Below, piece after piece: positions 24,013 through 28,993 of a stretch of 64,000 nucleotides of DNA. Position 1 is the first letter of the stretch; every line of letters starts with the position of its first letter. A program made the translations under genes and the position numbers. Origin of the DNA: Microcella frigidaquae (GTDB lineage Bacteria; Actinomycetota; Actinomycetes; Actinomycetales; Microbacteriaceae); NCBI RefSeq assembly GCF_014200395.1, contig NZ_JACHBS010000001.1, positions 558,001 to 622,000 of the forward strand. Reading direction: 5' to 3'. The notes beneath the pieces were generated by a model. It was not told the DNA's origin and did no database searches. It worked only from the letters and a program-made list of their open reading frames with translations.

Positions 24013-24456
24013 ATGGGTCGGTGGAACTCGCGCCGCGCCGGGCCCGAGCATCCGATGCTGTTCGTCGACGCGCGTGACATCCCCGTACCCGTCGAGCCGC
24101 CGCGCCCGCAGGCCGGCGCGGCGCTCGAGCCGTTCCAGCAACTGCTGGGCGCCGTCGAGGCCGAGCCGCTCGCCCTGCTCGGCCCGAGCAGTATCGGCCG
24201 CAGCGTCGTCGCGGGCGGCGAACGGCGGCGCCCCGATCCGGGGCTCGGCGGCGATGCCCTGCTCGACGACGGCGGAGCGGTGCTGCCCCTGCGTCTCCCG
24301 GCCGGCGCGCCGCGCGCCCTGCGCGACCGCCTCGCCGCGCGGTTCGTGCTCGTGCGCGGCACCCTGCGCCAGCATGAGGGGCACCTCGCTCTCGAGGTCG
24401 ACGAGGCGGTCGACCTGCGCGAGCTGGCGCGGCTCGCCCCCGGCACCCGCCGGTGA
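24013..24456 (+). CDS. Small protein behind a LexA box; OB-fold-like C-terminus suspected
   Basis: A 147-residue protein that I do not recognise as a named family. GGAGGAGG precedes ATG 24013, and a perfect LexA box lies 33 bases upstream, so it is very likely damage-inducible. The N-terminus is Pro/Ala-rich. The last 50 residues alternate strands and turns, with LAARFVLVRGTLRQHEGHLA and a closing VDEAVDLRELARL. This recalls the C-terminal OB-fold of the mutagenic polymerase DnaE2, without a polymerase domain. That resemblance is weak and by eye. It could be a mutasome accessory or a degenerate fragment. Confidence 0.7.
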   Translation: MGRWNSRRAGPEHPMLFVDARDIPVPVEPPRPQAGAALEPFQQLLGAVEAEPLALLGPSSIGRSVVAGGERRRPDPGLGGDALLDDGGAVLPLRLPAGAPRALRDRLAARFVLVRGTLRQHEGHLALEVDEAVDLRELARLAPGTRR

Positions 24457-24467
24457 GAGTGTTCTCA
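24454..24467. promoter_or_regulatory. TGAGAG palindrome upstream of the kinase/regulator operon
   Basis: TGAGAGTGTTCTCA overlaps the stop codon of the LexA-boxed gene and lies 40 bases before ATG 24508. GATAAT at 24496-24501 is a good -10 and would make the kinase mRNA leaderless, which puts this palindrome near -41 to -54, a normal activator position. The same motif recurs at 27223 and 27778. Confidence 0.6.
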
Positions 24468-24507
24468 TCCGGGCCCCGCCCAGCGAACGGCCGCCGATAA
24501 TGGACCC

Positions 24508-26094
24508 ATGACGCGCACCGGGCTCCGCCGCATCTCCGTGCGCTCGCGGATCCTCGCGGTGATCCTCATCGTCACCGCTCTCGGGATGACCGTCTCCGGC
24601 GTGACCGCCTACCTCGTTCAGCGCGACCGCACGATCGCGGGTCTCGACGCCGAGCTGCTCGCCACGGTCGAGGCAGCCCGCGGCATCGTGACGGGCACCA
24701 GCGCTCCCGCAGCGAGCGCCGACGAGGACGGGACCACCGGGGAATCGACCGAACCGACGGGGGCGGAGGGGGTTCCGTCCTCCGTGCTGGATGCGCTGAA
24801 CGGGATCCTCTCGCGGATCGTGCCCGGGCGGCACGAGAGCAGCGTGGCCCTCATCGACGGAGCTGTGCGGCTGCTGCCGGGCGTCGACACCGCATTCGAC
24901 CTCGAGGACGACCCCGCCTTCATCACGCGTGCCTGGGAGGAGGCGTCCGGCGGGCAGGTGACCCTCGGGACGGCGATCACCACGGTCGGCACCCTCCGGT
25001 ACGTCGCCGTTCCGGTGACGATCCCGGGCGACCCCGAGGTCGGCGCCTTCGTCACGGCCATCGACGCCCAGCGCGCCATCGACGAGGTGAGCGGCGCCTT
25101 CCTGACCTACGCTGGGCTCGCTCTGGCGTCGCTTGCCGCCATCGGCGTCATCGGCTGGTTCGTGGCCGGGCGGCTGCTCTCGCCCTTGCGCACCCTCGCC
25201 GAGACGGCCTCGCGCATCACGGCGCAGGACCTCGGCGAGCGCATCCCCGTCACCGGCCGCGACGACGTCTCCACGCTCACCGAGACGGTCAACGCGATGC
25301 TCGACCGCATCGATGAGGCCCTCACCAGCCAGCGTCAGCTGCTCGACGACGTGCGGCACGAGCTGAAGACCCCGATCACGATCGTCCGCGGGCACCTCGA
25401 GCTGCTCGACCCCACCGCCCCCGACGACGTCCGGTCGGTGCGCGAACTGGCCATCGACGAGCTCGACCGCATGGCCGAGCTGGTCAACGACATCGACGCC
25501 CTGGCCCGGGTCGAGACCCAGGTCGTGGTCGAGCCCGTCGACGTGGGCGACCTCACCGCGCAGGTGTTCGCCAAGATGCAGGCGATCCCGGGCAAGACCT
25601 GGGTACTGAGCGAGACCGCCACCGCCGTCGCGCCGCTCTCGACCTCGCGCATCACCCAGGCCTGGCTGCAGCTGGCCGACAACGCGGCGAAGTACGCGCC
25701 CGAGGGCACGACAGTGCGCGTCGGCAGCACGGCCTACAGCGGCTCGGTCGAGCTGTGGGTGGCCGACGAGGGTCCGGGAATCCCCGCGGGAGCCGAGAAG
25801 CGCATCTTCGAGCGCTTCGGGCGCGCCGACACCGGCCGCGGCATCGCGGGCTCGGGGCTCGGGCTGCCGATCGTCGCGGCCATCGCCCGGGCCCACGGCG
25901 GCTACGTGAGCCTCGACTCGTCCTCCGCCGGATCGCGGTTCGGCATCGTCGTGCCGACCGTCGCGGCTGCCGCGCCGCCGCCCCCGCCTCCCGCCCCGGG
26001 GTTCCCTGAGGGCGAGGAGCTCCCGACGGCCAGCACACCCACGCCCACCAGCACCGCGTCGAGCGCGATGCCGAGCACCACGGAGGACCGATGA
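24508..26094 (+). CDS. Two-component sensor histidine kinase
   Basis: The protein has 528 residues. One helix at about 15-37, an extracytoplasmic sensor of about 160 residues with an acidic Thr/Ser-rich insertion (66-90), a second helix (200-222), HAMP, then HisKA with His284 in VRHELKTPITIV. The ATPase domain shows DNAAKYAPEG, DEGPGIP and GSGLGLPI. A 45-residue Pro/Thr/Ser tail, including a run of seven prolines, follows the catalytic domain. It overlaps the response regulator by ATGA. The signal is unknown; the outward-facing domain suggests an envelope signal. Confidence 0.92.
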   Translation: MTRTGLRRISVRSRILAVILIVTALGMTVSGVTAYLVQRDRTIAGLDAELLATVEAARGIVTGTSAPAASADEDGTTGESTEPTGAEGVPSSVLDALNGILSRIVPGRHESSVALIDGAVRLLPGVDTAFDLEDDPAFITRAWEEASGGQVTLGTAITTVGTLRYVAVPVTIPGDPEVGAFVTAIDAQRAIDEVSGAFLTYAGLALASLAAIGVIGWFVAGRLLSPLRTLAETASRITAQDLGERIPVTGRDDVSTLTETVNAMLDRIDEALTSQRQLLDDVRHELKTPITIVRGHLELLDPTAPDDVRSVRELAIDELDRMAELVNDIDALARVETQVVVEPVDVGDLTAQVFAKMQAIPGKTWVLSETATAVAPLSTSRITQAWLQLADNAAKYAPEGTTVRVGSTAYSGSVELWVADEGPGIPAGAEKRIFERFGRADTGRGIAGSGLGLPIVAAIARAHGGYVSLDSSSAGSRFGIVVPTVAAAAPPPPPPAPGFPEGEELPTASTPTPTSTASSAMPSTTEDR

Positions 26095-26753
26095 CGAGCA
26101 TCCTGATCGTCGAGGACGAGGCGCGCATCTCGTCGTTCATCGAGAAGGGGCTCGCCGCGGCGGGCTACACCCCGACCGTCGTCGGCAACGGGCTCGACGC
26201 CCTCGACTACGTCGCGACCGGGTCGTTCGACCTGGTGCTGCTCGACGTGGGGCTGCCCGGCATCGACGGCTTCGAGGTGCTCGCGCGCCTCCGCGCCGCC
26301 GGCGAGACCATGCCGATCATCATGCTGACCGCGCGCACGAGCACCGACGACACGGTCGCGGGCCTCGACGGCGGTGCCAACGACTACCTGCCGAAGCCCT
26401 TCAAATTCGACGAGCTCGTGGCCCGCATCCGCCTGCGCCTGCGCGAATCGGGACAGCAGACCGTCGCCGAGACCGTGCTGCGGCACGGCGAGGTCGCGCT
26501 CGACCTGCGCACCCGGCGGGTGACCGTCGGCGAGCGGACCATCGACCTGTCGGCCCGCGAGTTCGCACTCGCAGAGCAGTTCCTGCGGCATCCCGACCAG
26601 GTGCTCTCGCGCGAGCAGCTGCTGAGCCGGGTCTGGGGCTTCGACTTCGACCCCGGCTCGAATGTCGTCGACGTGTACGTGCGCTACCTGCGCGGCAAGA
26701 TCGGGGCCGACCGCATCGAGACGGTGCGCGGGATGGGCTACCGGCTGGTCTGA
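26091..26753 (+). CDS. OmpR/PhoB-type response regulator
   Basis: The protein has 220 residues. The receiver domain has the acidic pair in IVEDE, phospho-acceptor Asp52 in LVLLDVGLPGIDG, the switch Thr in IIMLTARTS and Lys in YLPKPF. The C-terminal winged helix begins near residue 130 with LDLRTRRVTV and ends with the recognition region SNVVDVYVRYLRGKIG. It is the partner of the kinase encoded just upstream. I infer that it binds the TGAGAG palindromes at 24454, 27223 and 27778. Confidence 0.93.
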   Translation: MTSILIVEDEARISSFIEKGLAAAGYTPTVVGNGLDALDYVATGSFDLVLLDVGLPGIDGFEVLARLRAAGETMPIIMLTARTSTDDTVAGLDGGANDYLPKPFKFDELVARIRLRLRESGQQTVAETVLRHGEVALDLRTRRVTVGERTIDLSAREFALAEQFLRHPDQVLSREQLLSRVWGFDFDPGSNVVDVYVRYLRGKIGADRIETVRGMGYRLV

Positions 26754-26781
26754 GCGCCGGCGGCGGGCCGGACAGAGGAGG

Positions 26782-27141
26782 TCAGTCGTCGAGACTGGCC
26801 GGGCTGACCGGGCTGGCCGGCGAGGCGACCGAGGTGGTGACCGAGGGACGCGGGGCGACGGTCTGCGGGGAGGGAGCCGGCGCGACGCTCGCCGATGCGA
26901 CCGGCGCCGCGCTCGGGGTGGGCGACGTCGCCGGGGCGGGAGTCGACGACCCGGTGCCCGGTTGGGCGGCCGGGCCGCCCTTCTGGTCACCGGGGGTGGT
27001 CGTGATCGGCGGCACATCGGCGACCCGGGTGCTCTCGACGAGGGGCATCGCATTGGCGACACCGATCGCGCTGGTGGCGAGCACGCCGATGCCGAGCACG
27101 GAGGCGGCGGTGGCGGCGACCCAGCGACGCGCAGCGGCCAT
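26782..27141 (-). CDS. Small exported Ser/Pro/Ala-rich protein, SPAS-tail paralogue 1
   Basis: A 119-residue protein. The signal peptide has a basic start (MAAARRW) and a hydrophobic core ending in GVANA before MPLVES. The mature part is low in complexity, made of Pro, Ser, Ala and Thr, and ends VASPASPVSPASLDD. There is no membrane anchor or LPxTG. The junction and the tail match the 136-residue product of 27277-27687, so the two are paralogues. It converges on the response regulator gene. The palindrome at 27223-27236 lies 82-95 bases upstream of the start. Function unknown; a wall-associated or damaged-envelope decoy is only a guess. Confidence 0.75.
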   Translation of the reverse strand: MAAARRWVAATAASVLGIGVLATSAIGVANAMPLVESTRVADVPPITTTPGDQKGGPAAQPGTGSSTPAPATSPTPSAAPVASASVAPAPSPQTVAPRPSVTTSVASPASPVSPASLDD

Positions 27142-27210
27142 GGGTGCACCTCCTCTCCCCCGGCGGGTACGGGTCTGTCTTCATTCTGGCGGCTGACCGC
27201 GCCGAAAGCG

Positions 27211-27248
27211 ACGGCCTCCGGATGAGAGTGCTCTCATCCGGAGGCCGT
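27211..27248. repeat. Perfect 18-bp inverted repeat around the TGAGAG palindrome
   Basis: ACGGCCTCCGGATGAGAG (27211-27228) is the exact inverse of CTCTCATCCGGAGGCCGT (27231-27248), with TG between. The core TGAGAGTGCTCTCA (27223-27236) is the motif shared with 24454 and 27778. It lies 29 bases after the stop of the paralogue 2 gene and upstream of paralogue 1. It may therefore act both as an operator and as an intrinsic terminator, although no T tract follows. Confidence 0.75.
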
Positions 27249-27276
27249 CGGGCTGGTTCACTCAGCCGCTGCGCGC

Positions 27277-27687
27277 TCAGTCCTCGACGCTGGCGGGGCT
27301 CGCCGGCGAGGGAATGCTGGCGGGCGAGGCCGGGCTCGGCGCGGTGTCGACCGAGGCGGGCGAGACGGGGCTCGCGGGCGAGATCGGCGACTGCGCCGAC
27401 GCGGGCGAGACCGGCGACTGCGTGGAGGCGACCGAGGGGGTCGATGCCGGCGACGGCGTGGCCGGCGACTGCGCCGACGCCGGCGAGACGATGCTGTCGC
27501 TCTCGACCACGAAGTCGAGATCGGCGGTGCCGTCGTCGTCGGTGACCACGGTCAGGCCCGGCACGGTGAGACCGCTCACGGTCTCGATCAGCGGCATCGC
27601 GTTGGCGACGCTCGCCGCTCCGCCGGCGGCCACACCGAGGCTGAGCGCTCCGGCGGCCCCCACGGCGATCCAGTTCTTGGTGTCCAT
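27277..27687 (-). CDS. Small exported Ser/Pro/Ala-rich protein, SPAS-tail paralogue 2
   Basis: A 136-residue protein with a signal peptide (WIAVGAAGALSLGVAAGG core) cut near SVANA before MPLIET. A short acidic beta-like stretch (DDDGTADLDFVVESDS) follows, then about 70 residues of repeated SPAS/SPATP/SPVS units ending SPASPASVED. The product resembles that of 26782-27141 at the signal junction and the tail. AGGAGAGGAA precedes ATG 27687, and a hairpin (ACGGACC/GGTCCGT, 27709-27726) lies in the leader. A TGAGAG palindrome sits 91-104 bases upstream. Function unknown. Confidence 0.75.
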   Translation of the reverse strand: MDTKNWIAVGAAGALSLGVAAGGAASVANAMPLIETVSGLTVPGLTVVTDDDGTADLDFVVESDSIVSPASAQSPATPSPASTPSVASTQSPVSPASAQSPISPASPVSPASVDTAPSPASPASIPSPASPASVED

Positions 27688-27760
27688 GATGATGTTCCTC
27701 TCCTCCGCACGGACCGGGCGGTCCGTTGCGATGACCCCACTCTCGGCGGCCCGGGTGAGA

Positions 27761-28993
27761 TCACCAGGAGGAGGTGGTGAGAGGCCTCTCATCGGCGTTG
27801 ACGACTCGCTGGGCGCGTTCGATCAGCTCGGTCGCACCCGCACTGCCCGCCGCGGACCGGGACAGCGCGTGCCCGAGCAGCTGGGTGGCGGCGATCGCGT
27901 GAGCGCGGTGCACGAAGCCCGGATCCGGTGAGCGGAACCAGCGCTGCCGCCAGCCGTCGGCGAGCACCGAGGCGCGACGGGCGCGCACGGTGGCGCGGCT
28001 CCCGCCGTCGTGGACGACGGTCGCGATCAGGTGCGCGTAGAGTGCGGCGGCGTCATCCGCGGGGTCGCCCCACCCGGAGGTGTCGATGTCGAGAACGCCC
28101 GCGATGCTCGTGGGGGCGGCGGGGTCGACGAGCAGCTGGGCCAGGTGGAGGTCGCCGTGCACAGTGCGCGAGGGGGGCGGTGTCCCGCCCGCCCGGAAGC
28201 GCCGCGCCGCGGTGCGCGCCGTCCGCTCGATCACGCCGTCGAGGGCCGGCAGCTGCTCGATCAGGCGCTCCTCGTACCAGTCGATACGCCGCACCAGCGA
28301 TGAGCGGGCCGACGAGGTCGAGGGCACCCGGGCGATCCGCTCGCCGAGGAGCTCGATCGAGTCGAGTAGCGCGCCGGGGTCGGCGATGCGGTCGAGCACG
28401 CCGATGACCTCGGAGCCCGCGAGCGCCTCGAGGGCCACGAGGCCCTCCTCGCTCCAGCCGAGAACGGCCGGCACCGGGATGCCCGCCTCGCGCCACAGCG
28501 TGTGCCGGGCCTGCAGGGGCTCGGCCGCGGGCGGTCGCACGACCTTCAGGTAGTACGCGGTGGTGTCGGTGTCGACGCGCACGACGGCGCGTTTGCCGGG
28601 CCGGTAGGCGGCGAGACTCACGCGCAGGCCCTGCACGGGCAGCCCGAGGCGTGCGAGCACGACCCCGGCCGCCTCGGCGTAGACCGCCGTGCGCAGCGCC
28701 GGCAGCGAGGGATCTGCCGGGTAGACCCAGACGTCGACGCGCTCACCGGTGCCGGGGTTGCTGAGCGTGAGCACGCCTGGGCGCGCCCCCTCGGCGGGCG
28801 AGGTCTCGACGAAGACGGTGTGGTCGACCGTGGCACCGGAGCGATCGCGCAGGGTGACGCGATAGCCGTGCGTGAAACCATTGCCCGTCGGCTCGACCTG
28901 CAACGGCTGGGCGTCGGCCAGGTCGCTCTCGAGCGAGGTCGCGACGGCCATGAGGACGTCACGGTGGAGCACTCGGTCGGGCGCAGCAGTCAC
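27761..28993 (-). CDS. Aminoglycoside phosphotransferase-like kinase
   Basis: A 410-residue protein of the APH/choline-kinase fold. The catalytic loop is SRTVHGDLHLAQLLVD, with the conserved HGD and a downstream DIDTSGWGDPADDAA metal-binding motif. An N-terminal half with AYRPGKRAVVRVD and AYYLKVVRP provides the ATP-binding lobe. The substrate is unclear; sugar, maltose or aminoglycoside kinases share this fold. The final codons carry the perfect palindrome TGAGAGGCCTCTCA (27778-27791), which I assign to the promoter of the next gene. Start GTG 28993. Confidence 0.8.
   Translation of the reverse strand: MTAAPDRVLHRDVLMAVATSLESDLADAQPLQVEPTGNGFTHGYRVTLRDRSGATVDHTVFVETSPAEGARPGVLTLSNPGTGERVDVWVYPADPSLPALRTAVYAEAAGVVLARLGLPVQGLRVSLAAYRPGKRAVVRVDTDTTAYYLKVVRPPAAEPLQARHTLWREAGIPVPAVLGWSEEGLVALEALAGSEVIGVLDRIADPGALLDSIELLGERIARVPSTSSARSSLVRRIDWYEERLIEQLPALDGVIERTARTAARRFRAGGTPPPSRTVHGDLHLAQLLVDPAAPTSIAGVLDIDTSGWGDPADDAAALYAHLIATVVHDGGSRATVRARRASVLADGWRQRWFRSPDPGFVHRAHAIAATQLLGHALSRSAAGSAGATELIERAQRVVNADERPLTTSSW
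27778..27791. promoter_or_regulatory. TGAGAG palindrome upstream of SPAS paralogue 2
   Basis: TGAGAGGCCTCTCA is a perfect 14-base palindrome matching the 24454 and 27223 sites in its TGAGAG/CTCTCA arms. It lies inside the last codons of the phosphotransferase gene and 91-104 bases before ATG 27687. GGTGAGATCACC (27754-27765) adds a second, weaker dyad between it and the gene. Confidence 0.6.

What the first reader, a model, noticed from the sequence alone, without database searches (positions are those of the whole stretch)
24454..27791. Possible self-regulated two-component regulon with two secreted SPAS-tail proteins
Seen: the palindrome TGAGAG-N2-CTCTCA (one mismatch in one copy) lies 40 bases before the kinase/regulator genes and 82-104 bases before each of two small genes. 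The two small proteins share a signal-peptide junction (VANA then MPL, Glu two residues later) and SPASPVSPAS-type tails. Known: OmpR-type regulators commonly control their own operon. Inference: the regulator at 26091 activates both small proteins. Only three copies of the motif were noticed, all in this 3.4 kb, which argues against chance. I do not recall a described system of this makeup.
Basis: partly seen in the sequence, partly recalled or inferred. Interest (0 to 1): 0.75.

Follow-up and report, generated by a model that had tools for sequence, protein, structure and literature searches.

The report
Regulon of secreted tripeptide-repeat proteins
A bacterial sensor/regulator pair sits beside, and very probably switches on, genes for small exported proteins that carry a serine or threonine at about every third residue; the same switch, DNA signal and type of protein recur in many related bacteria and I found no description of them.

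Summary
The palindrome lies 40 nt before the kinase gene and 81 and 90 nt before the two small genes; the genome has a third small gene with the same site. Small-gene promoters carry an extended box, TGAGAG-N2-CTCTCA-N17-TCTCA, with a middle CTC unit and a -10 at fixed spacing: CTC units every 11 bp ending 11 nt before the -10, the geometry of a PhoB/OmpR activator site. In 297 genomes of the order, 36 have this box (reversed control 0); 35 of the 36 carry the regulator's relative, against 94 of the other 261, and 40 of 45 boxes lie within 5 kb of it. Downstream sit exported proteins whose tails have Ser/Thr with period 3 and usually end in Asp; no Pfam or NCBIfam family covers the window's two. 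The autoregulatory site before the kinase is conserved only in this genus and a few near relatives. The 27223 site is also the core of a 16-bp-arm hairpin after the first small gene. Not every palindrome copy belongs: two CG-centred ones look like sugar-repressor operators. Regulator binding, activation and the proteins' surface role are inferred, not shown.

The parts
24013..24456 (+). 147-aa ORF upstream of the kinase, no significant Pfam/NCBIfam match; its stop codon TGA is the first three bases of the kinase box
24454..24467 (+). palindrome (putative autoregulatory box, one mismatch, TGAGAGTGTTCTCA) 40 nt before the kinase ATG
   Evidence: arms 0.96 conserved over 21 loci of the genus against 0.54 flank and 0.45 spacer
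24496..24501 (+). predicted -10 GATAAT of the kinase promoter; ATG 6 nt further on, so a leaderless transcript is predicted
   Evidence: GATAAT-type -10 in 21 of 21 genus loci, but it was part of how those rows were picked; it is visible in the same 20 relatives picked by kinase position alone; leaderless reading is inference
24508..26094 (+). sensor histidine kinase, 528 aa: HAMP, HisKA, HATPase_c; two predicted membrane helices around an extracytoplasmic domain of helices and strands; no cysteine
   Evidence: AlphaFold2 model of residues 1-290, mean pLDDT 89.3
26091..26753 (+). OmpR/PhoB-family response regulator, 220 aa, overlapping the end of the kinase gene by 4 bases
   Evidence: Response_reg + Trans_reg_C; nearest solved sequences PrrA, RegX3, PhoP
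26782..27141 (-). sA: 119-aa predicted exported Ser/Pro/Ala-rich protein ending SPASLDD
27183..27188 (-). predicted -10 CAGAAT of sA
   Evidence: sequence; position as shifted by one
27213..27246 (.). perfect hairpin (16-bp arms, 2-nt loop) with the sA box as its core, just after the sB stop
   Evidence: 8 of 8 outer positions paired in 8 of 8 sites of this tandem sB-sA arrangement, dG -25 to -39 kcal/mol
27223..27236 (-). palindrome (box) before sA
   Evidence: the third CTC unit is absent here, present in some relatives' sA promoters
27277..27687 (-). sB: 136-aa predicted exported protein (start ATG at 27687) with Ser/Thr-Pro/Ala-x repeats, ending SPASVED
27739..27744 (-). predicted -10 GAGAGT of sB
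   Evidence: column pattern nAnnnT in 146 boxes
27756..27791 (-). extended box of sB: TGAGAGGCCTCTCA-N17-TCTCA (palindrome 27778-27791, middle CTCC 27767-27770, third unit TCTCA 27756-27760)
   Evidence: its palindrome lies inside the 3' end of the APH-fold gene
27761..28993 (-). APH-fold phosphotransferase gene, part of the conserved neighbourhood
   Evidence: PF01636 53.6 bits; neighbour in genus loci; a relative in 21 of the 33 listed distant loci that hold the regulator; its own exact palindrome in 8 of 43 loci examined

Best explanation
The kinase (24508) and OmpR-family regulator (26091) form a two-component system that senses an unknown extracytoplasmic signal. The phosphorylated regulator binds the box. 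At most small-gene promoters it covers an inverted pair TGAGAG-N2-CTCTCA followed by CTC units 11 and 22 bp further on, ending 11 nt before the -10, and so recruits RNA polymerase in the manner of PhoB/OmpR activators. At its own promoter it binds the palindrome alone (about -54 to -41 if transcription starts at the ATG) and sets its own level. The targets are small exported proteins: signal peptide, short linker, and a tail with Ser/Thr about every third residue, usually ending in Asp. The tail suits an extended, one-faced, possibly O-mannosylated surface filament; the genome has a protein O-mannosyltransferase gene. Shown: gene content, sites, conservation, co-occurrence, promoter geometry, period-3 tails, Pmt gene. 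Inferred: binding by this regulator, activation, export, glycosylation, surface role, signal.
For: Palindrome kept beside orthologous kinase and small genes across the genus: before 20 of 20 kinases of the fetched genus loci at <=1 mismatch. Extended box in 36 of 297 order genomes, reversed control 0 of 297; 35 of these 36 have the regulator relative at E<=1e-60 against 94 of 261 without the box, Fisher p 2.5e-13 (genomes are related, so p overstates); 40 of 45 boxes within 5 kb of it. Columns not used for selection in 146 boxes: middle unit C.73 T.88 C.84; -10 A.78 and T.90 at fixed spacing. A third small gene elsewhere in the genome has the full box. Period-3 Ser/Thr: lag 3 largest of lags 1-5 in 81 of 99 tails, 19 of 99 after shuffling. 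Pmt: PF16192 66.4 bits.
Against: No binding or expression data. Autoregulatory palindrome (<=1 mismatch) before 25 of 51 kinases examined (0 of 51 in shuffled sequence): 20 genus loci, two that look like repeat copies of genus loci (L146, L212), and L088, L127, L203; the distant families mostly lack it. 94 of 129 genomes with the regulator lack an exact box. Small genes without a palindrome at <=1 mismatch: L075's, and the sB-like genes of L081 and L083. Exact non-CG palindromes without the third unit precede unrelated genes in genus genomes (L100, L104, L105, L106). Simple palindromes also occur in G026, G027 and G033, where no regulator relative at E<=1e-70 was found. The extended box also precedes other gene types (glycosyltransferase-like, DUF4956-like, by eye) and a prophage gene. 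The window's sA promoter lacks the third unit. G003 keeps the small gene with a broken kinase/regulator.
Confidence: 0.75

Rival explanations
1. The linked regulator binds the boxes but represses the small genes (and itself).
For: Autoregulatory OmpR-type sites can be repressive (general knowledge); at the kinase promoter the -10 is about 5 bp nearer to the palindrome than in the small-gene promoters.
Against: In small-gene promoters the CTC array ends 11 nt upstream of a weak -10 (nAnnnT), and no TTGACA-like -35 shows in the columns, the arrangement of activated promoters (general knowledge of PhoB-type promoters).
Confidence: 0.12
2. Another OmpR-family regulator of the cell binds the boxes, and the linked pair is only a neighbour.
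For: Binding was not tested; these genomes hold several OmpR-type candidates (first-look counts), and 94 of 129 genomes with the linked regulator have no exact box.
Against: 35 of 36 box genomes carry the linked regulator against 94 of 261 others, and 40 of 45 boxes are within 5 kb of it.
Confidence: 0.08
3. The palindromes are LacI-family operators of sugar genes.
For: TGAGAGCGCTCTCA tandem pairs about 25 bp apart lie before sugar ABC-transporter genes here (by eye) and recur in the genus; they resemble the CebR operator (recalled).
Against: Centre dinucleotides of the extended boxes vary and CG is a minority (15 of 161 distinct boxes); their promoter geometry differs. LacI-type genes near the cassette were not searched for.
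Confidence: 0.04
4. The 27223 palindrome is only a transcription-terminator hairpin of sB.
For: It is the core of a 16-bp-arm perfect hairpin; outer positions are fully paired in 8 of 8 tandem sB-sA sites and change in a paired way.
Against: The box arms stay nearly invariant while the outer arms vary; the same box lies before the single small gene of 10 other genus loci, none of which has all 8 outer pairs; no T-run follows.
Confidence: 0.05

Closest known systems
PhoB/PhoP-type (OmpR-family) activators of direct-repeat boxes
   Same: Response_reg + Trans_reg_C regulator; direct units every 11 bp near the -10. Streptomyces PhoP units are 11 nt, GtTCAccnnnn, as cited in PMC6754071 (passages).
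   Different: Unit here is (T)CTCAT, with an extra inverted unit at the upstream end; the targets are exported repeat proteins, not phosphate genes.
MacRS of Streptomyces coelicolor (PMC9739842 and PMC10345050, passages)
   Same: Two-component system with membrane proteins and lipoproteins as targets; its site, recalled as TGAGTACnnGTACTCA and not seen in the passages, looks alike.
   Different: MacR is listed as NarL-family; the regulator here is OmpR-family.
CutRS of Streptomyces (PMC12802291 and PMC10433416, passages)
   Same: Envelope-related two-component system of actinobacteria (OmpR-type, recalled).
   Different: CutR site is TAWATAAA and CutS senses through two cysteines; the kinase here has none.
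PepSY-associated two-component systems
   Same: In a distant Chloroflexota genome (L187) the same box precedes a PepSY protein, with an OmpR-type regulator about 6 kb away.
   Different: No PepSY match among the 7 window proteins scanned.
LacI/CebR-type palindromic operators (recalled)
   Same: TGAGAG-CG-CTCTCA is such a palindrome.
   Different: Different centre, tandem layout and sugar genes.

Membership tests
OmpR/PhoB-family two-component system | Receiver plus winged-helix Trans_reg_C regulator with an adjacent HisKA/HATPase kinase | tested here: met
OmpR/PhoB-family two-component system | Target promoters with about 11-bp direct repeats near the -10 | tested here: met
   (146 boxes) and the window's sB; the window's sA and kinase promoters lack the downstream repeats
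OmpR/PhoB-family two-component system | Regulator binds these sites when phosphorylated | not testable with these tools
   needs a binding assay
MtrAB | Scores above the NCBIfam equivalog cut-off | tested here: not met
   MtrA 194.1 below 300, MtrB 132.7 below 450
Heavy-metal CztR/SilR/CopR subfamily | Scores above the NCBIfam subfamily cut-off | tested here: not met
   regulator 206.7 below 279.2; kinase 163.3 below 292.55
MacRS | NarL-family regulator | tested here: not met
   window regulator has Trans_reg_C; MacR listed NarL
CutRS | Two cysteines in the kinase sensor domain | tested here: not met
   0 cysteines in 528 aa
PepSY-associated two-component systems | PepSY partner gene in the cassette | tested here: not met
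   (7 window proteins)
Known secreted protein family for sA/sB | Pfam or NCBIfam match | tested here: not met
   none for sA; for sB only matches at E 0.056 or worse; 14 homologues of sB residues 1-70, none with a precomputed Pfam domain, names absent or 'hypothetical protein'

The most novel reading that the evidence does not exclude
An actinobacterial envelope switch whose main output is a surface coat of tripeptide-repeat proteins: a polyproline-II filament with every Ser/Thr on one face, O-mannosylated by Pmt, laid on the cell wall on demand. The operator of the second gene of a tandem pair is built into the hairpin that follows the first.
Probability: 0.25. Interest if true: 0.75.

Novelty: new variant of a known kind. 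Interest (0 to 1): 0.6.

Why it matters
It gives a defined operator, regulator and target family for a conserved two-component system (regulator relatives at E<=1e-60 in 129 of 297 sampled genomes of the order), and a family of exported proteins with period-3 Ser/Thr whose two window members match no Pfam or NCBIfam family. If the tails are O-glycosylated, it would be a regulated bacterial coat comparable to mucins or antifreeze glycoproteins (recalled comparison), and would make the role of actinobacterial protein O-mannosylation testable with clear substrates.

Tried and rejected
Simple palindrome as regulon marker: rejected, since CG-centred copies look LacI-type, other copies precede unrelated genes, and the motif with 2 mismatches is no more frequent in the window than chance. 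MacRS, CutRS and PolR as identities: rejected (MacR is listed as NarL-type, CutR site TAWATAAA, PolR site GTTCACnnnnnGTTCaC). Universal autoregulation: rejected beyond the genus and near relatives. Phylum range: exact box in only 3 of 296 genomes including the window's own (one of the three CG-centred), so the system is concentrated in the order. Prophage box: no phage record resembles that 4-kb stretch. Paper searches for the site, for PepSY systems and for tripeptide-repeat proteins gave no description: one search found 0 papers, three, seventy (12 listed), nine; apart from the papers named above I saw listings only, and the library holds open PMC papers only. No structure of the small proteins was predicted.

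Full report
What is there. The kinase and regulator genes overlap by four bases; domains HAMP-HisKA-HATPase_c and Response_reg-Trans_reg_C. Both small genes run the other way, convergent to the regulator. sB starts at ATG 27687 and its palindrome lies inside the last codons of the APH-fold gene; sA starts at 27141.

Genome. The window is C1:558001-622000 of one 2,548,915-bp contig; exact palindromes at six places, eight with up to one mismatch; the reversed control has three places at one mismatch and none exact. The one at 1391091 precedes a third protein of the family, 123 aa (MDAKNWIAIGAAG...). The pair 1404949/1404974 is tandem, CG-centred and near sugar ABC-transporter genes (by eye); it recurs in many genus genomes and is best read as a LacI-type operator. 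The one at 1901134 is inside a gene. The one at 720011 lies between prophage structural genes.

Genus. Kinase relatives (E<=1e-60) in 22 of 25 genus genomes; the three without are G003 (99% complete, frame broken in the assembly), G008 (82%) and G025 (71%). In the 20 genus loci fetched (L068-L087), 20 have a palindrome with at most one mismatch before the kinase. With the window, 21 loci show a GATAAT-type -10 28-30 nt after the palindrome, and the ATG follows 6 nt later: a leaderless start is predicted. Arms are 0.96 conserved, upstream flank 0.54, spacer 0.45 (rows were picked by palindrome and -10, so the arm figure is partly by construction, while picked them by kinase position only). In the 7 fetched loci with sB directly after the APH gene the palindrome lies in the APH tail; in 10 loci without sB it lies outside (from tblastn ends), so coding constraint does not explain it. 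Exceptions: the small gene of L075 and the sB-like genes of L081 and L083 have no palindrome at one mismatch or less. Other non-CG palindromes in genus genomes precede pilin-like, peptidase-like and lipoprotein-like genes (L100, L104, L105, L106; by eye) and lack the third unit.

Extended box. Aligning small-gene promoters shows TGAGAG-N2-CTCTCA-N17-TCTCA. Of these 80, 26 hold a protein of the repeat family by the filter, and 33 contain a regulator relative at 55% identity or more, 30 of them over 180 residues or more: among them Isoptericola, Georgenia, Demequina, Cellulosimicrobium, Oerskovia, Actinotalea, Phycicoccus and Arthrobacter. Some of the 80 look unrelated (Bacteroides, CG-centred Streptomyces sites). 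In 297 genomes of the order 36 have the box, control 0. The regulator relative is in 129 (E<=1e-60; at most 10 candidates scored per genome, so misses are possible); 35 of the 36 overlap, the exception G229 being CG-centred. 40 of 45 boxes lie within 5 kb of the regulator gene; two more are in G049, where box and regulator lie near contig ends; the others are G229's and two of the window's own genome, the third small gene and the prophage site. Phylum-wide the exact box is in 3 of 296.

Promoter. In 146 distinct extended boxes with a non-CG centre (all loci held then, listed or not, near relatives included), columns not used to choose them are strongly skewed: middle unit C.73 T.88 C.84 then C/A at 22-25, T.67 and T.64 after the first and third units, and a -10 with A.78 at 49 and T.90 at 53. 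That is three direct CTC units at 11-bp spacing plus one inverted unit, ending 11 nt before the -10.

Proteins. 99 distinct proteins were taken by a filter asking for a palindrome upstream, a hydrophobic start, an early Trp and an end rich in S/P/A/T/V/D/E/Q/N (39 from relatives and own genome, 31 from listed records, 15 from unlisted ones, 14 from order loci). Composition is thus selected, periodicity is not, and a few entries (L207, DUF4956-like) do not belong. Ser/Thr autocovariance is about +0.1 at lags 3, 6 and 9 and negative between; lag 3 leads in 81 of 99, against 19 of 99 shuffled. 77 of 99 end in Asp. In 26 aligned genus members 11 columns are invariant, most in the signal region. 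Residues after Ser/Thr in the repeats are mostly Pro or Ala. The genome has a Pmt gene.

Hairpin. In 8 of 8 tandem sB-sA sites the sA box is the core of a hairpin with all 8 outer positions paired, the outer arms changing in a paired way. Of 10 single-gene sites none has all 8 outer pairs; of two further two-gene loci, L083 has 8 of 8 and L081 7 of 8. The 8 sB, 10 kinase and 7 third-gene sites tested have 6 or fewer. The site is read as serving both as operator and as the end signal of sB; no T-run follows.

Kinase sensor. AlphaFold2 on residues 1-290 with 47 relatives: mean pLDDT 89.3, pTM 0.71; long helices around helix-strand-strand-helix-three strands. The order of elements recalls a PDC/Cache-type sensor (from memory; no fold comparison was obtained).

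Distant echoes. In two Chloroflexota and one delta-proteobacterial genome (L156, L187, L164) the box lies in the same 8 kb as an OmpR-type regulator 44-46% identical, and beside Asp-rich or PepSY exported proteins. This suggests an old link of the box with exported proteins, but the cases are too few to test.

Verdict. The kind of switch is known; the target family and operator appear undescribed in what I could search.

Noticed in passing
L064:3490-3525 (genome C1:719989-720024, outside the window): A perfect extended box with three CTCA units at 11-bp spacing lies between prophage structural genes, but without a -10 at the regulon spacing.
   Followed up: partly
L024:1501-2445 (genus genome G003): The kinase/regulator reading frame is broken by deletions in this assembly while the small gene and both palindromes remain; real loss or misassembly.
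   Followed up: partly
L066:3550-3588 (genome C1:1404949-1404987): Tandem CG-centred palindromes 25 bp apart beside sugar ABC-transporter genes (by eye), recurring in the genus; probably LacI-type.
   Followed up: partly
L129, L137, L144, L172, L174, L182: The extended box precedes a glycosyltransferase-like gene (RVVLYSHDSQGLGHTRRNLALAHAL type, by eye) in Arthrobacter, Mycetocola and a Propionibacteriaceae genome: a possible further regulon branch.
   Followed up: no
L156 and L164: In a Chloroflexota and a delta-proteobacterial genome the box lies by an OmpR-type regulator, an Asp-rich protein and ApbE/ferric-reductase-like genes (by eye).
   Followed up: no
window 25957-26091: The kinase has a Pro/Ser/Thr-rich tail of about 45 residues after the ATPase domain.
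   Followed up: no
L092, L098, L110, L158, L198, L213, L219: In these distant loci the stretch just before the kinase gene is rich in Asp codons (the end of an Asp-rich frame, e.g. L098) and has no palindrome.
   Followed up: partly
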